Assembly: GCA_949318235.1 (NCBI GenBank)
Contig: OX439133.1
Coordinates: 21,327,447-21,391,446, forward strand
Length of the DNA stretch: 64,000 nucleotides
DNA from: Ecdyonurus torrentis
Taxonomy: Eukaryota > Arthropoda > Insecta > Ephemeroptera > Heptageniidae
Direction of reading: 5' to 3'
The notes under the pieces are model-generated. The model saw only the letters and a program-made list of their open reading frames with translations. It was not told where the DNA came from and searched no databases. Both the position numbers and the translations under genes were made by a program. Positions 2,990 to 24,400 of this stretch are shown here, one piece after another (the first letter of the stretch is position 1; every line of letters starts with the position of its first letter).

Positions 2990-3535
2990 GTATATATATA
3001 AATACATGGCTTGTATCTCAAAAAGAAAAAAAATAATTGAAAGGTTATTATGAAATTTGAAAGTTAATTGTAACAGCTACCTATGATACAATTTTCAGAA
3101 CCCGTGACCATCAGATAAGAGAGAAAATAGTTATTGTATTTAACTTTGGCTCTTATGGGACTAACACACAGTAGATGGTACAGTAGTCCATCTCCTATAG
3201 CGGGAATGTCAGATCGAATGCGCGCCATAATTCCGACTGGGTGAAGGTGGCAGAACTAGAAGCCGTAATTTGAAGTAATGTTACGTGTAGTTCTGACAAC
3301 TTCACCCAGTCGGAATAATGGCGCGCATTCGATCTGACATTCCCGCTATAGGAGATGGACTACTGTATAATATACTGTGGGACTAACACTACAAAAAAAC
3401 ATAATTTAAAATCTAGCACGCTGACCTTCCAATTTTTATAACATTTTTGAAGATACCATATCCTAATGTATCGATTTGCAAAATTTCAGATTTTTCTCTC
3501 TTTATAATATTTTTAGACAAATCCCGCAGTACCTG
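2990..3535 (+). repeat. Dispersed repeat, CAAGCCAT/CCCGCAGTACC family, copy 1
   Basis: Runs from TGGCTTGTATCTC to CCCGCAGTACCTGATTTCCC. Other copies are at about 23175-23510 (same strand), 17140-17480 and 18030-18385 (opposite strand). This copy is split by the MITE at 3167-3379. The 23.2-kb copy gives the uninterrupted sequence. Confidence 0.7.
3167..3379. mobile_element. Palindromic MITE with 9-bp target duplication
   Basis: GGACTAACA occurs at 3158-3166 and again at 3380-3388, directly abutting inverted ends CACAGTA and TACTGTG. The arms then match almost perfectly inward (CAGTAGTCCATCTCCTATAG against its reverse complement, and on through GCGCGCCAT) around a short unique centre. The uninterrupted relative at 23330 has a single copy of the target. 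A 9-bp duplication points to a Mutator-like mover; the family assignment is inference. Confidence 0.8.
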
Positions 3536-3539
3536 ATTT

Positions 3540-4155
3540 CCCGACTTATGCAAAACATTTTTTATGAAAATCTATACAGCTCTGTATTAGTCTTGTAGTC
3601 GTTACCTAAATATACTATCACATTAGGTTATTTTCATTTGTGATTATAACGATAGTGATAACTCTAATTTGTCTCCAACTATAACTTTACTTTTAGCGTT
3701 AACTAGAAAGTTTTTTTAACGGAATTAAAAAAATATTAACTCACCATAGTAAGATGTATATTAGTTATTAAATTCATGAATTACTTTACTTTACTAAATT
3801 AAAATAATCCAAAAAATTATTATGCGGTACAACTTAATGGTTATGCTATTGTAACACATTAATTGTGTATTAAAACTTAAATTATGCTGTATTGAACTAA
3901 TTGTGTTGAAAATGGGTTACCATAAATATTAATAATTTATTTTCTTTCCGTTCATAATTTTACATGTTTTACTATAATATAAATATAATATGTACATAGA
4001 TATGAAATAATGAAAAGGAGAAGGATATTTTCAAATCGATAAGACGTTGGTTTTATTTGTTATGATTACTACTAGTCTTTTATAAAAGGAACATATTATT
4101 CATAGCAGCAAAAAAGTGATCACCTGAAAATCCAGTCTCTAATTAAAAGTAAATG
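3540..4155 (+). repeat. Dispersed repeat, copy A continued
   Basis: Matches 23510-24170 in order and orientation (shared TTAGTCTTGTAGTCGTTACC, GTACAAC with GGT/GGTAATGCTATTGTAACACA, and GATCACCTGAAAATCCAGTC). Includes the GCATAA/TTATGC-rich stretch near 3820-3910. It ends where the LINE begins and resumes at about 12016. Confidence 0.75.
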
Positions 4156-4456
4156 CTTAAACTCCAACATAATTAATGTTAATGCTAACTTAAGTGAAAT
4201 ATCAAAAAATGTGAAATTGTCAAAGTATCCAGAAAGTTCTTCAAAATCAGGGGCAGCTGTCCTGAATGAATCACATAAGCAGACGCCACCTGTTAGCTAT
4301 AAAACGTACCACTCACAATATCAACCCCGCGGTTTTAGCTATGAAACAAACTTTCCACCATTCACAACAATCAACCTAAGCAACGCAAAGAAAGATACGT
4401 TAATCTTGATTGGAAAGCATCTCGTTCACAAAACTCTTCAAATTTCAACAATGTAA
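4142..4456 (+). pseudogene. N-terminal part of LINE ORF1, out of frame
   Basis: An open frame runs through the LINE 5' edge to 4456 with protein-like composition (serine, asparagine and proline-rich; contains YPESSSKSG and PPVSYKTYHSQYQPRG). It lacks a credible ATG; a GTG at 4211 is the best in-frame start. The codons before about 4156 lie in flanking repeat DNA, so the true ORF1 start is lost by truncation. The reading seems to continue in another frame from about 4345 (KQRKERYVNLDWKASRSQN), so a small indel between about 4345 and 4420 probably broke ORF1. No known domain recognised. Confidence 0.5.
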
Positions 4457-4509
4457 ATAATCAACAACTCTCACCAGCGTTTGAATCTTTTAATAGATTC
4501 TCTGTACTA

Positions 4510-5568
4510 ATGGATGAAGATTTTACATCAACTAATGTGAATGATCAACCTAATAAATTTAATTTTAAAATGACAGAAATGAATGGCCACAAAGACTTAT
4601 TCTCAGTTCCAAACCATTTCTCTCTAGCTCACTGCGTGGGAGAAGATTTCTTAATGAGTAGTGGTATAGCTGTAGATTTCAAACAAAAGTTTGGACGTGT
4701 CGACGAACTCAAATCTATGCATAAGAAGACAGGCCAAGTAGCTACTTTAAAAGATGGAAAAAGACACATATTCTATCTTATAGCTAAACCACAATCAAAA
4801 TCCAAACCTCATTTGCACGATGTGATTGCTAGTCTACATGAACTTAAAACAAAATGCGTGCAGATAGGAATAAAAAATATCGCTATTCCTCGTCTAGCCA
4901 GTGGTAAAGACAAACATAACTGGCCTATGATAAGGGATATCATATTAAATATCTTTAATGATACCAATATCAACATGAGAGTGTACTACATGCCCCAACC
5001 CCCTCAAAACAACTACAATACGAGAACAAACTCTGGCATGGGTAGTTCGAAATCGCATGTGAGTAATGAACGTACAACATCTCCTAAATCAAAACGTGCT
5101 CCCCCTCCCCCCTCTAAATGTGCTCCTCCTCCCCCCTCAAAATGTGCTCCCCCTCCCCCCTCAAGACTCGTTACCACTTCTCCCGCAGAACTACAAAATC
5201 TTGCATCTGTATCGCTTTCTCCTCACAAAAATCAAAATTCAACCCCACTTGAAGATAATCAACCTCCACCCCATACTTATACGCCACCCACATCAAAATC
5301 TAGTGCTCAAAATTTTTCTTCCCTTCTTCTTTTAGAAAGTGATGGTGTGCAAAATGTGCTTAATATTACTGACCACAATTTACATTTTAATACCCAAAGT
5401 AATGTGGCAGCTACTGACTTGAACCCTCAATTTCAAATACCCATGGAATATTATGATGTAAATCATTATAATGATAATCCTAACTTTTCACAATATGTTC
5501 CATCTCCTACTAACATAAATCAACATTTTTTACCGCCACCTCAGCCAAACCTAGTTCCTGTAACTTAA
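4510..5568 (+). CDS. LINE ORF1 protein with TARG1/OARD1-like macro domain and proline-rich tail
   Basis: The frame is open from 4345; the first ATG is 4510 (352 residues). Residues about 27-162 read as a macro domain of the TARG1/OARD1 type, the fold that binds ADP-ribose and in TARG1 removes ADP-ribose from acidic residues. Motifs in family order: LFSVPNHFSLAHCVGEDF, MSSGIAVDFKQKFGRVDEL, HIFYLIAKPQ, IAIPRLASGKDKHNW, and a closing MRVYYM strand. The two TARG1 catalytic residues have counterparts here: Lys93 (YLIAK) and Asp134 (SGKDKHNW). Residues about 194-218 hold three tandem units of roughly KCAPPPPS, a polyproline stretch of the kind that binds SH3, WW or EVH1 modules. The rest is asparagine/proline-rich and low in complexity. 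No RRM, zinc knuckle or esterase domain, the usual LINE ORF1 modules, is visible. The domain call is confident; the role in retrotransposition is unknown. The protein may be broken upstream. Confidence 0.8.
   Translation: MDEDFTSTNVNDQPNKFNFKMTEMNGHKDLFSVPNHFSLAHCVGEDFLMSSGIAVDFKQKFGRVDELKSMHKKTGQVATLKDGKRHIFYLIAKPQSKSKPHLHDVIASLHELKTKCVQIGIKNIAIPRLASGKDKHNWPMIRDIILNIFNDTNINMRVYYMPQPPQNNYNTRTNSGMGSSKSHVSNERTTSPKSKRAPPPPSKCAPPPPSKCAPPPPSRLVTTSPAELQNLASVSLSPHKNQNSTPLEDNQPPPHTYTPPTSKSSAQNFSSLLLLESDGVQNVLNITDHNLHFNTQSNVAATDLNPQFQIPMEYYDVNHYNDNPNFSQYVPSPTNINQHFLPPPQPNLVPVT
5526..5532 (+). promoter_or_regulatory. Candidate -1 ribosomal frameshift site UUUUUUA
   Basis: T TTT TTA sits in the X XXY YYZ phase of ORF1 (codons CAT TTT TTA). 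The ORF2 frame is -1 relative to ORF1 and opens at 5514 after a stop at 5511, so the site lies inside the 55-nt overlap before the ORF1 stop (5566-5568). A -1 slip here would fuse ORF1 to the endonuclease/RT. UUUUUUA is an established eukaryotic slippery heptamer. I did not identify a convincing downstream pseudoknot by eye. Confidence 0.45.
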
Positions 5569-8500
5569 AAAATGGTAAAAATACGAACTGTATTACAAGC
5601 AACAATAACAATTTTGCTTTAAAAATTCTGCAACTAAATATTCGTTATATCAGAGATAAACAAAAATTATTTGAACTTTTACTTTCACAGGAAAATATCG
5701 ATATTGTAATTTTATGTGAACATGGTTTAAAAGAAAATGAAATTAAGACCCTAAATATTGCCAACTATACTATTATATCATATTTTTGTCGATCTGATCG
5801 TAAGTCTGGTGGTGTCGCAATTTTTGCTCGTTCTAATTTAAATTTTGAAGTGGAAGAAACTAAAAATATAAATTCTGTTGAACCATATTTAGAATGTTCT
5901 AGTATAAAATTCAAATTTAATAAAATTTACTATTATATAATTTCTATATATCGCTCTCCAAGTGAGCATACAAATTTATTTTTTAAGCATTTTGAAGACA
6001 TGTTAAAGTCACTCCAATCCACTGTAAAAGGTGATGATATCTTATTGATTGCAGGAGATTTTAATATAAATATAAAAGATAAATCACTTGAATCTCTGAG
6101 CTATACTGACTTATTAGAATCATTTAACTTAGAAATTCTAAACACTGATCCAACGCATATCAATAAAAAATCATCAACACTTCTGGATCACATTATTACT
6201 AACAAGAAATATTTATTTTCTAATATATGTACTAATAGCATTCCATTTTCAGATCATGAATACCTTACATATATGCTGAATATTAAAAATAATAATAATA
6301 TTGTTACTAATGTTCAATATAAGACTATTCATAAGCGTAATTTTAATAGAACAAATAAAGATCTATTTCTAAGATTACTTGCAAGAGAAAACTGGGATGA
6401 TTTACTAAAATGTACCGGTGACTCAGATGCTAAATGGGAAGTTTTTCATTCTACCATTCTTTACCACTTTAATGAAGCTTTTCCTAAACTCCCTAAAAAA
6501 ATTTGCACGCGAAAAAAAAGAAAACCAGCATGGATTCAAAATAATCCCCAACTATTAGTAGAAAGTGATTTCATAAGACATTTACACACAACTTTGAAAT
6601 ACAATGATACCAATGACCCTGATTTAAAAAATAAAATTAAAAATCAATTATATAATCATAAAAAAAATGTAGAAAAAGCAAATCGCGTTGAAAACGATAA
6701 CTTTATTGCTACTGCTACAAATAAAATTTAAGCGTCTTGGGAAGTTTATAATAAAAACTTTAAAATGAAAGAAAAAAACTACTCATCTTTAAATAAAATA
6801 AATAAAAATGACTGCACAATTGTTGATCCGAAAGAAATCTCGAATGAATGCAACAATTTTTTTGTAAATACAACTAAAAATAAAATAATTGACACATACG
6901 GAGAAATAAATGATACTGTGATACAAAATTATAAAAATTACTGCAGTGTTAATAACTCAAATAATAACTTTAAAAAATTTAGTTTCAAAAATGTTGATTA
7001 TATATTTGTTCTTAAAATAATTAAAAAATTTCCAAATAAAAATGCAGCAGGCCCTGATGAAATCCCGTATCACGTAATAAAAGATGCAGCAGAATTGATT
7101 GCTGTACCTTTTACCCACTGTTTTAACGAATCTATCAATGAAGGAACTTTTCCTTCAATTTTTAAAACCGTTAAAGTTATACCCCTGCATAAAAACGGTG
7201 CGACAGACCTTATTGAAAATTGGAGACCAATAACTAATGCTTCTGTTTTTTCTAAAGTTTTTGAGTCTATTATAGATTTACAATTTTCTGAATTCGAAAC
7301 AGAAAACAAGCTTATTCCTGACAACCAACATGCCTTTCAAAAGGGTAAATCCACAACCACTGCAATTTTTGATTTTCTAAATCCAATTTATGATGATCTA
7401 GAAAATAAAAACTTATGCGTTGCGTTGTGTTTTGATTTTTCGAAAGCTTTCGATTGCTTACCACCTGAATTCTTTTTAGCAGAACTTGAGAGTATAGGAG
7501 CAGATGAAAATTCTTTGAAACTTTTTAAATCTTTTTTATCTGGTCGGTATCAATACGTTGAAATTAAACATAACTCAGATAACGTAATAAACAATACTGC
7601 TAAATCTGACGTTATTCCAGTGACCCTAGGTGTGCCCCAAGGTTCTAAATTGGGACCCCGTATCTATAACTTTACAACACGCAATTTAGCTAAATCTCTA
7701 ACATATGCACAGCAAACTACATATGCTGATGATAACAATTCAAAGGTTGCCGCTAAAACTTCGCATGATCTTGAATTTAGGGCAAATTTAACTGTCCGAG
7801 AATTTAATGACTCGTGTAAAATTAGCAGGTTGCTTTTGAATGGTAATAAAACCCTATATCTTAATTTTCATTTACCGTCGCAAAATTTAAATCAACCTTT
7901 AAATTTATACCTTGACAATGAGCCGATCAACGAAGTTTATAACACAAAATTTCTCGGCCTAAATATTTGTAATGACTTAAATTGGGCTTTACATGTTGAC
8001 ACAATTGCTAAGAAAATAAACTCTGGCAATTTTGCACTTTTCTCAATTCGTAATTTAGTATCTGAATCATCACTTGTCTCAATCTATTATGCTTACATAT
8101 TTTCCCATTTAAATTATGGAATTATCTTTTGGGGCAGTGACAACAAATGTATGCAACGTTTATTTATCTTGCAAAAAAGAGCAGTTAGAACTATGAAAAA
8201 TATTGGCAAATATGAATCATGTCGATCTATATTTACTGAACTAAAAATGCTTACATTACCATCTCTGTACATTCTAAACTGCGCCATGTTTAAGAGAAAA
8301 AACTCTTCTAAATTTCAGCTTATAAGTGATATATCACCGTATGATACTAGAAACAAATCTAAAGTTCTAATTAAAAAACACCACTCTGCTTTCTATGAAA
8401 AGAACCCATACTATCAAACACATACCATTTATGATGCTCTTCCTAATACACTTAAAAACATTGAAAGCCATGATAAATTTAAATTTGTCTTAAAACAAAT

Positions 8501-8687
8501 TCTAATTCAAAAAGCGAGTATTATAATATATGCGAATTTTTCTCCAACAATTCTAAAATTACAGAAGATGAATGCATTCAATTTATACGTAAATAATAAA
8601 TTTTATGTATTATTATATTATTACACTCTCTGTTATTTTATTATAATTATTTCACTAATCATGATTATCATTTTTATTATTATTATC

Positions 8688-8689
<2 letters not shown>

Positions 8690-8771
<82 letters not shown>
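8690..8771. repeat. (TA)n microsatellite in the LINE 3' UTR
   Basis: About 80 bp of uninterrupted TA directly abutting the mariner-like element. It gives the adjacent coding frame an artefactual Tyr-Ile tail. The tract supplied the TA target for the insertion, and may have expanded before or after it. Confidence 0.95.
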
Positions 8772-8774
<3 letters not shown>

Positions 8775-9031
8775 GGTGTCCATAAAGTCTCTGAGGGTGT
8801 TTAGACGCTGTTAAAACACATAAGGCTCAACGGAACATAAACTTTTTATATATCAAATTAAAGCTTGAATTATGACAATTTTGAAAATCAAAACATAAAT
8901 GCAATCAGATGATTATTAATCTTCCTGCATCAAAACCGCAAAAAAAGAGAAAATTGACTTCCGATTTGCACATTTTAACGCTTTCATCATCTGAAAAAAC
9001 ACATACAGATTCAAAATTTGTAAGGTCTCAC

Positions 9032-9272
9032 TCAAATTTTCTGAAACATTACCTCAAGGCCTCTCCACATGCACCCATTGGTAGCACGACACACGTTGAG
9101 ACGAACCTCTAGCTCGCGAGTCACGTTGCGGAGAGTCTGCGGTCGTGATGGTCCGATAGTGGCGGTGATACGCTGCTTCAACTCACGTATGTCACGCACT
9201 TTCGTCTTGAAGACCTGATCCTTGACGTAGCCGCAGAGATAAAAGTCGGGTGGCGTGAGATCAGGAGACGAG
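9032..9272 (-). pseudogene. Inverted duplicate of the mariner transposase C-terminus
   Basis: On the minus strand this reads SSPDLTPPDFYLCGYVKDQV through TLRNVTRELEVRLNVCRATN to GLEVMFQ, the same C-terminal segment found on the plus strand at 9646-9816 plus 11406 onward. Because it is uninterrupted here, it shows the sequence across the site where the foldback split the plus-strand copy. It is part of the left inverted arm, not an independent gene. Confidence 0.8.
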
Positions 9273-9307
9273 TGCATTGCGTGTTTGTGTGGTAAAGTAA
9301 AAACTGA

Positions 9308-9816
9308 CAGAACGTGTGTTTCTGGGGCACAGAACGTCCAGCCACAGCTCGTACGTTCGAACGTGACAGTTCCAAGGCAATTAATTGGTGCGCAGTCCTG
9401 TACGATTGTGTGATCAGCCCGTTCTTCTTCCACGAGCCAACTGTCCACTGGAACAACTACCTGAACATGCTTTAGAATTACGCCATCTCTCATCTGCTGG
9501 GGTTACGGAGTGGGGTTACGAGCTCATCTTCCAGCAGGACGGAGGGCTCCCACATTGGGCGCACGTTGTCAGAGACGAGCTGGCTCAGGTGTTTCTAGGC
9601 AGATGGCTACATCGTGGAGGACCCAAGGCGTTGGCTCCCAGGTCTTCTGATCTCACGCCACCCGACTTTTATCTCTGCGGCTACGTCAAGGATCAGGTCT
9701 TCAAGACGAAAGTGCGTAACATACGTGAGTTGAAGCAGCGTATCACCGCCACTATCGGACCATCACGACCGCAGACTCTCCGCAACGTGTCGCGCAAGCT
9801 AGAGGTTCGTCTCAAC
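9308..9816 (+). pseudogene. Mariner-like transposase, C-terminal catalytic part, broken
   Basis: From 9308 a frame reads NVCFWGTERPATARTFERDS, INWCAVLYDCVISPFFFHEP and TVHWNNYLNML before a stop. After a frameshift, a second frame gives ELIFQQDGGLPHWAHVVRDE, then SSDLTPPDFYLCGYVKDQVF and ends in KLEVRLN at the foldback junction. These are the central and C-terminal landmarks of a mariner-like DDE/D transposase: FQQDG holds the second catalytic Asp, and SSDLTPPDF holds the third about 37 residues later. The remaining C-terminus (starting VCRATNG) is displaced to 11406-11489 by the insertion. The DNA-binding N-terminus and first catalytic Asp are absent. Related transposases are widespread in arthropods and other invertebrates. 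Clearly dead. Confidence 0.8.
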
Positions 9817-10307
9817 TAAAGACCCTTAACAAAGAAGAGACATCCCCTGATTTTAGGCTACCTGGATGTACACGGCCGCACGACAAGGCTGCATACACTC
9901 GATAAACTGCAGGCGGCGATCGACAACCAATCAGCGCTTCACTTTTTGGGGTAAAATTCAGCGGCCAATCAGAGCGCATTGATGTTCCCGCTATGATTTA
10001 AACATCTCTAGCTTCAAGGACGAAAGTGAAAGACAACGAAATTAATATATTTACTCAACTCAGAATATTATTTTAGTTGTTGTAGGACGAAAGACATAAA
10101 AATAATTATCGATTTTTACTGTTTCATTTTGTCACGGCAATAAATTAAATACGACGGCTGTACCAACTGCCGTCATATTTCCCGCATATCTGTTCTGTCT
10201 GTCGTGTTGTTAGTGATCTTTTCATCTGAAGGAGACTGTTGAATTATAATTATTGAAATTTTAGTTTGAAAGAGAGGAAAACAAATAATAAAAATATGAA
10301 CAGGACG

Positions 10308-10338
<31 letters not shown>

Positions 10339-10405
10339 TCTGGGCGGCGGCGCTTGGGTCTTTCCCTTCTTGCTAAAATTATATACAGATGTTTCATCTT
10401 AAGCC

Positions 10406-10479
10406 ACCGTGATAGCTCACTTGTCTACGCCTTGATGACATGTTCGAAAGGTTACGGGTTCAAATCCGTCTGACTTTTT
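10406..10479 (+). ncRNA. tRNA-like Pol III unit, left foldback arm
   Basis: An A box TAGCTCACTTG (10413-10423) and B box GGTTCAAATCC (10457-10467) lie at tRNA-like spacing, and a TTTTT run at 10475-10479 fits a Pol III terminator. Folding by eye gives a poor acceptor stem and a weak D stem, so this is tRNA-derived rather than a working tRNA. Transcription would run toward the loop of the foldback. Confidence 0.55.
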
Positions 10480-10741
10480 CCTGTCTCTATTTCTTTTTTT
10501 TTTTTTATTAATATTATTTTTTTTTAATAATTATATTACACAATAATTATTCAGTTATTTATTATTATAAAGAATAATAAAAAAAAAGGAAAATAATTTT
10601 GCATTTAATTTTTTTTTACTCTTTGTAAAATTAAATATAACTGAATTATTATTGTGTAATAATATAATAATTAATGATAAATGATAACAAACAAAAAAAT
10701 AATAATAAAAAGAAAAAGAAAAAAAAAGAATTAGAGACAGG

Positions 10742-10814
10742 AAAAAGTCAGCGGATTCGAACTCGTAACCTTTCGAACGTATCATCAAGGCGTAGACAAG
10801 TGAGCTATCACGGT
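10742..10814 (-). ncRNA. tRNA-like Pol III unit, right foldback arm
   Basis: Mirror copy of the left-arm unit on the minus strand: A box TAGCTCACTTG (complement of 10797-10807), B box AGTTCGAATCC (complement of 10753-10763), T-run (complement of 10742-10746). The B box has TTCGAATCC, closer to the tRNA consensus than the left copy. The two units converge on the loop. Confidence 0.55.
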
Positions 10815-11405
10815 GGCTTGAGATGGATGAATGAAACATCTGTATATAATTTTAGCAAGCAGGGAAAGAACCAAGCGCTGCCGCCCAGACTCTCTCTCTC
10901 TCTCTCCGTCCTGTTCATATTTTTATTATTTGTTTTCCTCTCTTTCAAACTAAAATTTCAATAATTATAATTCAACAGTCTCCTTCAGATGAAAAGATCA
11001 CTAGCAACACGGCAGACAGAACAGATATGCGGGAAATATGACGGCAGTTGGTACAGCCGTCGTATTTAATTTATTGCCGTGACAAAATGAAACAGTAAAA
11101 ATCGATAGTTATTTTTATGTCTTTCGTCCTACAACAACTAAAATAATATTCTGAGTTGAGTAAATATATTAATTTCGTTGTCTTTCACTTTCGTCCTTGA
11201 AGCTAGAGATGTTTAAATCATAGCGGGAACATCAATGCGCTCTGATTGGCCGCTGAATTTTACCCCAAAAAGTGAAGCGCTGATTGGTTGTCGATCGCCG
11301 CCTGCAGTTTATCGAGTGTATGCAGCCTTGTCATGCGGCCGTGTACATCCAGGTAGCCTAAAATCAGGGGATGTCTCTTCTTTGTTAAAGGTCTTTAGTC
11401 TCAAC

Positions 11406-11489
11406 GTGTGTCGTGCTACCAATGGGTGCATGTGGAGAGGCCTTGAGGTAATGTTTCAGAAAACTCGAGTGAGACCTTACAAATTTTGA
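11406..11489 (+). pseudogene. Displaced last codons of the mariner transposase
   Basis: Continues the frame broken at 9816: VCRATNGCMWRGLEVMFQ and on to a TGA at 11487-11489. Removing the foldback and one copy of its 8-bp duplication brings this in frame with LEVRLN, showing that the foldback arrived after the transposase formed. The same peptide is intact in the inverted left arm. Confidence 0.75.
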
Positions 11490-11729
11490 ATCTGTATGTG
11501 TTTTTTTAGATGGTGAAAGCGTTAAAATGTGCAAATCGGACGTCAATTTTCTCTTTTTTTGCGGTTTTTGATGCAGGAAGATTAATAATCATCTGATTGC
11601 ATTTATGTTTTGATTTTCAAAATTGTCATAATTCAAGCTTTAATTTGATGTATAAAAAGTTTATGTTACGTTGAGCCTTATGTGTTTTATTAGCGTCTAA
11701 ACACCCTCAGAGACTTTATGGACACCCTG

Positions 11730-12015
11730 TATATTAAACTTACTTTATATAACTATTCATATTATTTTATTTCTACTTTAATTACTTAAATTAAAATGTT
11801 TTTGATGTCTAAATATGTTTCTATAATACTGTACTATTATTTAAATATGTATATACCTAGATATAGTTATTTTCTTTGATTTAGATGTAATGTATAAGTG
11901 TAAGTTGTATAATTTTATTCATTATATTATTGTGTACTTTATTGATAAGAATCTATGTTTTAAGTTTGACGTGATCATGCATTTATGCCACTGATTGTAA
12001 CAAAAATAAATAAAT
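11730..12015 (+). other. LINE 3' UTR end and A-rich tail
   Basis: AT-rich noncoding sequence between the mariner right end and the resumption of the host repeat. It finishes with AAAAATAAATAAATAAATAT, a short tandem tail of the kind that ends many CR1/Jockey-group LINEs in place of simple poly(A). Confidence 0.65.
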
Positions 12016-12450
12016 AAATATAAAAAAACAGTAATAAATTATTGAGATAAAGCTTCTTGTGTGATTTTAAGATTTTCAAATGTAATATATAAAGTTCTTG
12101 CCGTTGATTTTTAACTTTTCGTTTTATACGATACTCGGTGTAAATATTTTTAAAAATTTCAAAAAGTTATATAAGCGCTGCATATTTCAATTCAAATAAA
12201 GTAATAAATTTCGTTATTTTGAAGTATATTATATTTAAAATTGTAGATTAACAAGTCAGATATATTATTACTATATCTTACGTTTGTTTGTGATTTAATT
12301 TTTTGAAATAATTGGCAAAGTGGAAAGTCTATTAATTTTACCAAAATTTTTGTGTTTACTGCTTGTCTGCTTTGGAATACATTGATATAACCGTGATTTT
12401 GTTTGTTACATATTGTTGGAAATAAATATAAAATATTACAATACAAAGCA
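12016..12450 (+). repeat. Dispersed repeat, copy A resumes after the LINE
   Basis: TAATAAATTATTGAGATAAAGC and the following 200 bp match 24188-24390, directly continuing the segment broken at 4155. No coding content. Confidence 0.75.
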
Positions 12451-22189: not shown

Positions 22190-24400
22190 GAGAATTCATA
22201 TGGAAATATTGACCACATATATAAGTAAAAATGTACAAACACTTACTCTGAAACAATTAGAGCAAGATACTTATTTATAATATGATAATCTCTCACTACT
22301 AGTTACTAGTTATTGAAATATAAATAATAATATGCTTCAAAAAACTGTTTAAAAACATTTTAATAAAGATTTTTAAACTTTACGAAATATCGATCTTCAA
22401 ATTAAAATCGACGAAATTTCTGTACTCCATTTGTGAACATTAAAAGTCATATTATTGACTTTTTTAATAAGATATACAGCTAATATTGGCTTAAATATTA
22501 TTTAGATTTACTTTCAATTTGTATATTATTTTTATTACTGTAAATAATAGACACCCTCGTCTACTAATATTAGTTACTATGAATTGCTTTGGCCAATACA
22601 ATTTCTTATTTGTTATTCAAAGTATAACCAATACTAGGAATGCAGTTTGTAAATTACTGAAATTAAATTATATATTTGACCCGACGTAGCAGTTTAAACA
22701 ATACAAAATCAGCTAATACAAATTAATTTTCTTAGAAAAAGGGGATCTCTAGTGCACTAAATTGATAATTAAAATATTAATATATAATAAAAATATATCC
22801 TAAAATTAAAATATCAAAGCGTGCATGCATTCAAGTTAAAGTTGACGCCATGTTGGACCATTTAATAACATGCGCTGCATAGGAAAATGACATTTAGCAA
22901 GTTTAAAAATACTAAGCAACATTTTTGAGACAATTGGTGCTATATAGTGGTTACAGTAGTATTTCAAGTATGAGAAAAAAAAAACTGATTTCTAAAGAAA
23001 ATAGCCAAAAACCAAGTTAGTTCTATACTGAGCAATGTTATTCATTATTCTAGTACGATGTCCAAAAGCACTAAATATTACGTCATGCGGATACACCCTA
23101 TAAAAATAAAATATTTGTTATTTTAAAAATTTTATAATTAGTAATAAATACTAAGAAGTTTAAGGCTTGTATATAGATGGCTTGTATCATCTGAAAATGT
23201 AAAAAGAAATATTTTAAAAAGTTATCATGCGATTTGAAAGTTAATTGTAACAGCTACCTATGACATAATTTTCAGAACCCGTGACCAGATAGGAGAAAAA
23301 ATAATCATTGAATATAACATATTAGCTCTATGGGTCTAAAACTTAAAAAGAACTTCATTTAAAATCTAGCATGGTGTCCTAATTTTTTTTTTTTTTTTTT
23401 ACATTTTTGAAGATAGCATAATATCCTAATTATCATTAATCCTAATTAGATTTTTCACCCTTTACAATTTTTTAGTCAATTCCCGCAGTACCTGATTTCC
23501 CGACCGAAGAAATAAAAATTTATTAAAATCTATCTTGCTCTGTATTAGTCTTGTAGTCGTTACCTAAATATACTATCACGTTAAGTTAATTTCTTTTGTG
23601 ATTATAACGGTAGTGGTAACTCTAATTTGTCTCCAACTATAACTTTACTTTTAGCGGTAACTAGAACGTTATTTTAATGGAATTAAAAAAAATATTAACT
23701 CACCATAGTAAGATGTATATTAGATATTTAATTCATGTATTACTCTACTTTACTAAATTAAAAAAAAATATATTATATATATATATATATAAAGTGGTAC
23801 AACATAATGGTAATGCTATTGTAACACAGTAATTGTGCATGAAAACCTAAATTATGCTGTATTGAACAAATTGTGTTGAAGATGGGTTGCCACAAATATT
23901 AATAATATATTTTCTCCATACAATGACTTACAGCATAAATTAGAAAAAATTTCTTTCCGTTTATAATTTTACATGTGTTACTATAATATAAATATAATAT
24001 GTACATAGATAATAAATAACGAAAAGGAGAAGGAAATATACAAATCGATAAGACATTGGTTTTCTTGTTATGAAGTTATGATTACTACTGTTCTTTTAAA
24101 AAAGGAACATATTATTCATAGCAGCAAAAAAGTGATCACCTGAAAATCCAGTCTCTAATTAAAAGTAATGCTTATTATCAAAAAACACTAATAAATTATT
24201 GAGGTAAAGCTTCTTGTGTGATTTTAAGATTTTCAAATGTAATATAAAATTCTTGCTGTTAATTTTTAACTTCTTGTTTTATTCGATGTATATATTATTA
24301 TACTTGTAAATATGGTTAAAAAAATCCATAAATTATATTTAAGAGCTGCGTATTTCGATTAAAATAAAGTTACTAATTTTGTAGTTAGAAATAAATATAA
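22190..24400 (+). repeat. Dispersed repeat, copy B, not split by the LINE
   Basis: Same order as copy A (1-4155 plus 12016-12450) but without the LINE and the 3167-3379 MITE. It includes a GGGTGTATGC-family MITE at 22818-23101 in the same relative place as 665-943. Copy A's segment around 950-2990 is largely missing here. This copy defines the LINE insertion point. Confidence 0.75.
22818..23101 (+). mobile_element. MITE, GGGTGTATGC family, copy in repeat B
   Basis: GTGCATGCATTCAAGTTAAA, GTTGACGCCATGTTGGACCA, ACTGAGCAATGTTATTC and ATGCGGATACACCCTA are present. It sits at the homologous position to 665-943, so it was in the parent repeat before that repeat was copied. Confidence 0.75.

What the first reader, a model, noticed from the sequence alone, without database searches (positions are those of the whole stretch)
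4588..4996. A TARG1/OARD1-like macro domain inside a LINE ORF1 protein
ORF1 residues about 27-162 follow the TARG1 macro-domain motif order, and both catalytic residues have counterparts (Lys93 in YLIAK, Asp134 in SGKDKHNW). LINE ORF1 proteins normally carry RRM, zinc-knuckle, esterase or PHD modules. An ADP-ribosyl hydrolase there would suggest the element reverses host ADP-ribosylation (for example PARP activity at its nicked target, or antiviral PARPs) during insertion. The role is inference; the motif match is direct.
Basis: partly seen in the sequence, partly recalled or inferred. Interest (0 to 1): 0.88.

Follow-up and report, generated by a model that had tools for sequence, protein, structure and literature searches.

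The report
ADP-ribose-removing enzyme domain inside LINE ORF1
Several families of self-copying DNA elements (LINEs) in an arthropod genome carry, inside their first protein, a well-preserved relative of an enzyme that strips ADP-ribose tags off proteins and nucleic acids, which suggests that these elements undo a host signal while they insert.

The parts
4160..12018 (+). Inserted block: a LINE of about 4.9 kb, interrupted by a nested inverted-repeat transposon cluster
   Evidence: Window 3375-4159 matches 23328-24174 (80.7%) and window 12019-12229 matches 24176-24396 (78%), i.e. a diverged unoccupied site. A 99% copy, L054, runs over window 5825-8710 and then straight on to 11730-12026.
4345..5565 (+). 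ORF1 open frame (407 aa; 352 aa from the ATG at 4510)
4211..4456 (+). Open stretch upstream in another frame, perhaps more of ORF1 with a frame change in this copy; homology to the empty site ends at about 4159-4160, so ORF1 may be 5'-truncated here
   Evidence: the frame-change and truncation readings are inference
4576..4986 (+). TARG1/OARD1-like macro domain
4786..4788 (+). Lys93 codon, counterpart of TARG1 catalytic Lys84
4903..4905 (+). Gly132 codon, counterpart of TARG1 Gly123
4909..4911 (+). Asp134 codon, counterpart of TARG1 catalytic residue 125
5089..5164 (+). 24-bp tandem repeat (3.2 copies) in the proline-rich part of ORF1
5574..6728 (+). ORF2, endonuclease part
   Evidence: PF03372 E 1.2e-9, PF14529 E 1.6e-8
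6729..6731 (+). In-frame stop between the EN and RT parts of ORF2: this copy is not intact
6765..8801 (+). ORF2, reverse transcriptase part (RVT_1 match about 7191-7967); the open frame runs on through a TA repeat into the nested transposon
   Evidence: RVT_1 E 3.8e-23; TA repeat 8690-8771
8772..11734 (.). Nested inverted-repeat transposon cluster that splits the LINE 3' region (not part of the LINE)
   Evidence: 340-bp arms 8767-9105 / 11395-11734 at 96.8%; absent from the L054 copy
11735..12018 (+). Remainder of the LINE 3' end, ending in short A/T-rich repeats
   Evidence: 97.7% match to L054 directly after the ORF2 region
23328..24396 (+). Diverged duplicate of the target region without the LINE (pre-insertion site)

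Best explanation
The window holds a recent, non-intact copy of a LINE whose ORF1 protein contains a TARG1-type macro domain. Shown: the family and predicted fold, the conserved catalytic residues, the placement in ORF1 ahead of EN-RT, the recurrence in many families and the purifying selection. Inferred: the domain is an active ADP-ribosyl hydrolase that travels with the element's RNA-protein particle through ORF1. Inferred, most likely use: at the EN-nicked target, host PARPs modify the element's proteins, nearby chromatin proteins and possibly free nucleic-acid ends; the ORF1 domain removes those ADP-ribose groups so that the particle stays on the DNA and the ends stay usable for priming and completion. 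Removal of silencing-related ADP-ribose marks on chromatin proteins, or of marks on the element's RNA, is a second possible target of the same activity.
For: TARG1 is the best match by sequence and fold. All 26 LINE rows with a complete domain keep Lys, Gly and Asp; these include near-identical copies, about 14 lineages by my count. Of 17 pairs compared, six had usable dS: domain dN/dS 0.08 (L024/L029), 0.11 (L025/L029), 0.14 (L003/L014), 0.10 (L003/L010), 0.17 (L014/L010), 0.16 (L035/L037), against 0.80, 1.05, 0.50, 0.33, 0.25 and 0.52 for the rest of ORF1 (the pairs share members). 29 of 38 loci read have EN or RT downstream in sense. Near-identical copies (L005/L007/L008 99.75-99.86%; five pairs among L037/L038/L039/L041 99.88-99.96%) indicate recent spread with the domain, and L031 holds an unbroken ORF1 frame of 526 aa and an overlapping unbroken ORF2 frame of 976 aa. 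TARG1 is reported to cleave ADP-ribose from acidic residues and nucleic-acid ends and to interact with PARP1 (PMC7050489, passages), and to reverse thymidine-linked ADP-ribose on DNA (PMC8501950, abstract). PARP1/PARP2 act at L1 integration nicks (PMC8535693, one passage).
Against: No activity was measured. Loss of PARP1 or PARP2 is reported to lower human L1 retrotransposition (PMC8535693), so an eraser at the nick would have to act late or locally. The good fold model used TARG1-type relatives in its alignment; with one relative only the model was poor (pLDDT 56.7). dS is above 1.5 in four of the six usable pairs and saturated in three more. L019/L020/L021 give domain dN/dS of 0.68-1.27 on 6-11 changes, i.e. 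no sign of constraint among those copies, and the other young pairs have too few changes. Within the window's own family the macro domain is seen in one copy only.
Confidence: 0.68

Rival explanations
1. The domain is mainly a reader: it binds ADP-ribose or PAR made at nicks and tethers the particle to sites where PARPs are active; hydrolysis is incidental.
For: Macrodomains, the ALC1-like class included, comprise readers as well as erasers (PMC7050489, passages). PARP activity marks L1 target sites and helps L1 (PMC8535693, passage).
Against: A pure reader would not be expected to need both catalytic residues, yet Lys and Asp are present in 26 of 26 LINE rows. One host-like domain in the same genome (L012, first domain) has lost the Asp.
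Confidence: 0.2
2. The macro fold has been reused as an RNA-binding or particle-building part of ORF1, with no ADP-ribose chemistry.
For: LINE ORF1 proteins are expected to bind RNA (recalled), and Pfam at E <= 0.01 found no RRM or zinc knuckle in the eight LINE ORF1s among the ten proteins (a sub-threshold PHD in one).
Against: Reuse would be expected to relax the pocket; the catalytic set is invariant and the window model superposes on ADP-ribose-bound TARG1 (4j5s).
Confidence: 0.09
3. A host TARG1 exon was captured once by this copy, or lies beside the LINE by chance.
For: In the macro trees the window copy groups with L002, a locus without EN/RT in the stretch read. No second copy of the window's family with ORF1 was found.
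Against: The domain lies inside the delimited insertion, and 29 of 38 loci read show the same order. ORF1-like proteins with the same layout occur outside this genome (P0002, P0003).
Confidence: 0.02

Closest known systems
TARG1 / OARD1 (C6orf130), ALC1-like macro-domain hydrolase
   Different: TARG1 is a small stand-alone host protein; here the domain is one part of a LINE ORF1 protein, with proline-rich, coiled-coil-like (by eye) or PHD-like regions around it
CR1/L2/Jockey-superfamily LINE ORF1 types I-V (Metcalfe and Casane 2014, PMC4120745; abstract and passages seen)
   Same: Modular ORF1 ahead of ORF2; ORF1 exchange between lineages
   Different: The types in the passages seen are built on RRM, CCHC, PHD and esterase parts, type V being unclassified; the word 'macro' occurs 0 times in the main text
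Macro-domain ORFs of fish epsilon-like endogenous retroviruses (Basta et al. 2009, as cited in PMC4977317)
   Same: A retroelement with a macro-domain protein (one sentence seen)
   Different: Extra ORF of an LTR provirus, not LINE ORF1; macro class not stated in the passage
Viral macrodomains (alphavirus nsP3, coronavirus Mac1)
   Different: Far by sequence (12-13% identity to CHIKV nsP3)
DarG antitoxin macro domain
   Different: 20% identity; part of a bacterial toxin-antitoxin pair

Membership tests
TARG1-type (ALC1-like) macro-domain hydrolase | Sequence and fold closest to TARG1 | tested here: met
TARG1-type (ALC1-like) macro-domain hydrolase | Catalytic Lys84/Asp125 pair and Gly123 | tested here: met
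   window and 25 other LINE rows, 26 of 26 with a complete domain
TARG1-type (ALC1-like) macro-domain hydrolase | Hydrolysis of ADP-ribose esters | not testable with these tools
   needs purified protein
Non-LTR retrotransposon (LINE) | EN and RT encoded downstream of ORF1 | tested here: met
   PF03372 and PF00078
Non-LTR retrotransposon (LINE) | 5'-truncated copies sharing a 3' end | tested here: met
   42 rows (the window included); by my count 26 end within 30 bases of the query's 3' end, none but the window starts at base 1, and five others are 97-99% identical
Non-LTR retrotransposon (LINE) | Discrete insertion at an otherwise empty site | tested here: met
Non-LTR retrotransposon (LINE) | Target-site duplication | tested here: inconclusive
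   junctions compared; no clear duplication
CR1/L2/Jockey superfamily | RT groups with named members of that superfamily | not tested
   no named LINE library at hand; the label rests on recalled motifs
Known LINE ORF1 types I-IV | RRM, CCHC, PHD+RRM or esterase in ORF1 | tested here: inconclusive
   Pfam finds none in the window ORF1, but this copy may be 5'-truncated; among eight LINE ORF1s only a sub-threshold PHD in L018 (E 4.8e-4). Pfam may miss diverged RRMs.

The most novel reading that the evidence does not exclude
ADP-ribose erasure is a shared counter-measure of non-viral retroelements: a TARG1-derived module in ORF1, exchanged between distant LINE clades and separately recruited by at least one Ty3/gypsy-like element (P0012), removes ADP-ribose that the host places on the element's particle, RNA or integration site.
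Probability: 0.4. Interest if true: 0.9.

Novelty: new variant of a known kind. Interest (0 to 1): 0.78.

Why it matters
It adds a likely catalytic ADP-ribose eraser to the short list of LINE ORF1 parts and shows it conserved in mobile families. That makes a vague question testable: does host ADP-ribosylation restrict or shape LINE integration? It also gives a natural set of diverged TARG1-type domains, and a clear case of ORF1 exchange between LINE clades.

Tried and rejected
Pfam on the window ORF1: Macro only at E 0.034, and two weak hits to other families (Ndc1_Nup, SOG2) that I took as noise. Protein search with the whole ORF1 restricted to residues 1-175: nothing. Viral-contig scans with the domain, with the RT and with alignment A2: no relatives. 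Genome-contig scan with A2: turned down because the alignment was too diverse, not repeated. First fold with one relative: poor, replaced by the 14-row alignment.

Single origin of the LINE macro domains: not decided. The AU test does not reject all LINE rows as one clade (p 0.066; p 0.285 when the window row is left out of that clade), and several forks are weak. Naming the two RT groups: not done against named elements. In the RT tree (11 rows) the program warned of long branches meeting (L018) and of two short rows (L019 39%, L028 49% filled).

Loci without EN/RT in sense downstream in the stretch read (L002, L004, L006, L012 = L017, L013, L015, L027, L030; 9 of 38) I treated as host genes, rearranged pieces or relics; the label 'host' in the trees is mine. 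For L002 one more 3-kb stretch was fetched and its open frames listed; I recognised nothing in them, without a search. 40 of the 78 rows were not fetched as loci of their own (a few lie inside loci read). L034-L041 were picked from the rest for their long open frames, before their flanks were seen, so 29 of 38 is not an unbiased rate; near-identical copies are counted apart, and L012/L017 are one place. L005 and L009 match over their whole 3,480 bases, flanks included, and lie 26 kb apart, so that pair may be a local duplication and not two insertions.

The host is called an arthropod from at least 150 Chitin_bind_4 matches and the recalled fact that this cuticle family is large in arthropods; no closer name was found. 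Copy-number searches for the L005 family and the L037 family and a search for the odorant-binding family did not complete.

Full report
What is there. At 4345-5565 an open frame codes 407 residues of ORF1, followed by an endonuclease part (5574-6728) and a reverse transcriptase part (6765-8801) in one frame, separated by a stop at 6729.

The insertion. Window 3375-4159 is 80.7% identical to 23328-24174, and window 12019-12229 is 78% identical to 24176-24396, so the duplicate shows the site without the element. The simplest reading is one LINE insertion at about 4160-12018, into which a palindromic transposon cluster (about 8772-11734, arms 96.8% identical) later inserted. A 99% identical copy of the ORF2 region on another contig (L054) lacks that cluster: it runs over window 5825-8710 and straight on to 11730-12026, which gives the 3' end. 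No clear target-site duplication was seen. The ORF2 DNA of this family has 42 rows in the genome, the window included; by my count 26 end within 30 bases of the query's 3' end, and five others are 97-99% identical. This is the pattern of a recently mobile LINE. No other row covers the first 250 bases of ORF2, and the next-best macro row in the genome is 48% identical, so within this exact family the macro domain is seen once.

Other families. A search with the domain found 78 rows in the genome. I read 38 loci: the 30 delivered by that search and 8 picked later for their long open frames, so the sample is not random, near-identical copies count apart, and L012 and L017 are one place. 29 of 38 have EN or RT downstream on the same strand. 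Examples: L005/L007/L008/L009, ORF1 526 aa, 99.75-99.97% identical (L005 and L009 share flanks and may be a local duplication), with unbroken ORF1 and ORF2 frames in L031; L010/L011 (560/559 aa); L016 (572 aa); L018, a sub-threshold PHD finger plus macro; L019/L020/L021; L024/L025/L029; L028 and L034-L041, ORF1 frames of 385-446 aa with a coiled-coil-like region (by eye), the macro domain and a proline-rich tail, overlapping ORF2. Five pairs among L037/L038/L039/L041 are 99.88-99.96% identical over 2.4 kb or more. In one search the Macro cut-off is passed by seven of ten proteins, five of them LINE ORF1s; L003 and L010 fall below and L019 has no Pfam match.

Selection. In the 26 LINE rows with a complete domain, Lys, Gly and Asp are present in 26 of 26. 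Rows with an incomplete domain (L015, L022, L023, L026, L027, L030) and duplicates (L017, L031) were left out. One host-like domain (first domain of L012) has Asn for Asp. Across the 13-row alignment A2 the Lys, Gly and Asp are among 13 invariant columns. I compared 17 pairs. Six had usable dS: domain dN/dS 0.08 (L024/L029), 0.11 (L025/L029), 0.14 (L003/L014), 0.10 (L003/L010), 0.17 (L014/L010) and 0.16 (L035/L037), rest of ORF1 0.80, 1.05, 0.50, 0.33, 0.25 and 0.52. The six share members, and four have dS above 1.5, so the ratios are rough. Three pairs were saturated (L005/L010, L028/L034, L036/L037). Eight had few or no changes; of these L019/L020/L021 show 0.68-1.27 on 6-11 changes, as expected of copies decaying after insertion, and not as constraint.

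Exchange of ORF1. In the RT tree (11 rows) L034 and L028 are joined with L010 (99/99) and lie far from L035 and L037, which join L029 on a long branch (100/100). Holding L028, L034, L035 and L037 together on RT is rejected (AU p 0.000135). In the macro tree L028 and L034 fall with L035-L041 (100/100), and holding L010, L028 and L034 together is rejected (p 2.6e-101). L005 and L010 are together by macro (100/97) but apart by RT (not AU-tested). So ORF1, or its macro part, has moved between clades at least once and probably twice. Cautions: the RT tree carries a long-branch warning for L018 and has two rows under half filled, L028 among them; L034, which is nearly full, takes the same place. Whether the LINE macro domains were captured once or several times is open (AU p 0.066 for one clade). 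I call the two RT groups CR1/L2/Jockey-like and 'second group' from recalled motifs; no named library was at hand.

Outside this genome. A search with A2 found 15 proteins. P0002 (414 aa, source tag lgn) and P0003 (434 aa, jgi) are ORF1-like with the layout of L028; P0011 and the earlier P0001, both jgi, look like pieces of such proteins; P0004 is named OARD1; P0005-P0010, P0013 and P0014 are 155-229 aa and were not studied; P0015 and P0016 look bacterial to me. P0012 (ENA) bears two Pfam domains that I recall as retroelement RT/RNase H parts, followed by a TARG1-like domain with Lys and Asp kept: perhaps a second kind of retroelement with the same module. Their hosts are not known to me, and none of their contigs was read.

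Literature. Searches for macro domain or macrodomain with LINE, ORF1, non-LTR retrotransposon, transposable element, OARD1, TARG1 or Gypsy listed no paper that by title, abstract start or the passages I opened reports a macro domain in LINE ORF1. One search listed 20 of 373 papers, and I opened few of the listed ones. The survey of 448 Jockey-superfamily ORF1s (PMC4120745; abstract and passages) does not use the word; two macrodomain papers hold no 'transpos' (PMC7729036, PMC10221186; term search). The library lacks most subscription journals, so this is no proof of absence. Precedent: macro-domain ORFs in fish epsilon-like ERVs (one sentence, PMC4977317).

How it may work. TARG1 is reported to cleave ADP-ribose from acidic residues and nucleic-acid ends and to interact with PARP1 (PMC7050489, passages), and to reverse ADP-ribose on DNA thymidine (PMC8501950, abstract). 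PARP1 and PARP2 gather at the L1 nick, and their loss lowers L1 retrotransposition (PMC8535693, passage). SIRT6 represses L1 by mono-ADP-ribosylating KAP1 (PMC4695847, passage). An ORF1-borne eraser could therefore trim ADP-ribose from the particle or the DNA ends at the nick, or lift silencing marks. The sequence evidence supports catalysis; it does not choose between these targets.

Noticed in passing
window 8767-11734: Near-palindromic transposon cluster (340-bp arms 96.8% identical; 9815-11399 matches its own reverse complement at 90%) inserted at the LINE's TA repeat.
   Followed up: partly
window 23328-24396 and 3375-4159 / 12019-12229: Diverged duplication of one genomic stretch within the window; serves as the pre-insertion site of the LINE.
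   Followed up: yes
P0012 (protein database hit): Retroelement RT/RNase H-type domains (names recalled) followed by a TARG1-like macro domain with the catalytic Lys and Asp kept.
   Followed up: partly
L012 697-1929 (G000 C4): Host-like open frame with two tandem TARG1-type macro domains; the first has Asn in place of the catalytic Asp.
   Followed up: no
L018 (minus strand), RT in L033: LINE ORF1 with a sub-threshold PHD finger plus macro domain and an unassigned C-terminal part; EN downstream.
   Followed up: partly
L006 634-2997: 788-residue frame with repeated short proline-containing motifs around a TARG1-type macro domain, no EN/RT in the stretch read.
   Followed up: no
L002 1126-1968: Macro-domain frame closest to the window's copy (51% identity) without EN/RT in the stretch read: a relic, a truncated LINE or a host gene.
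   Followed up: partly
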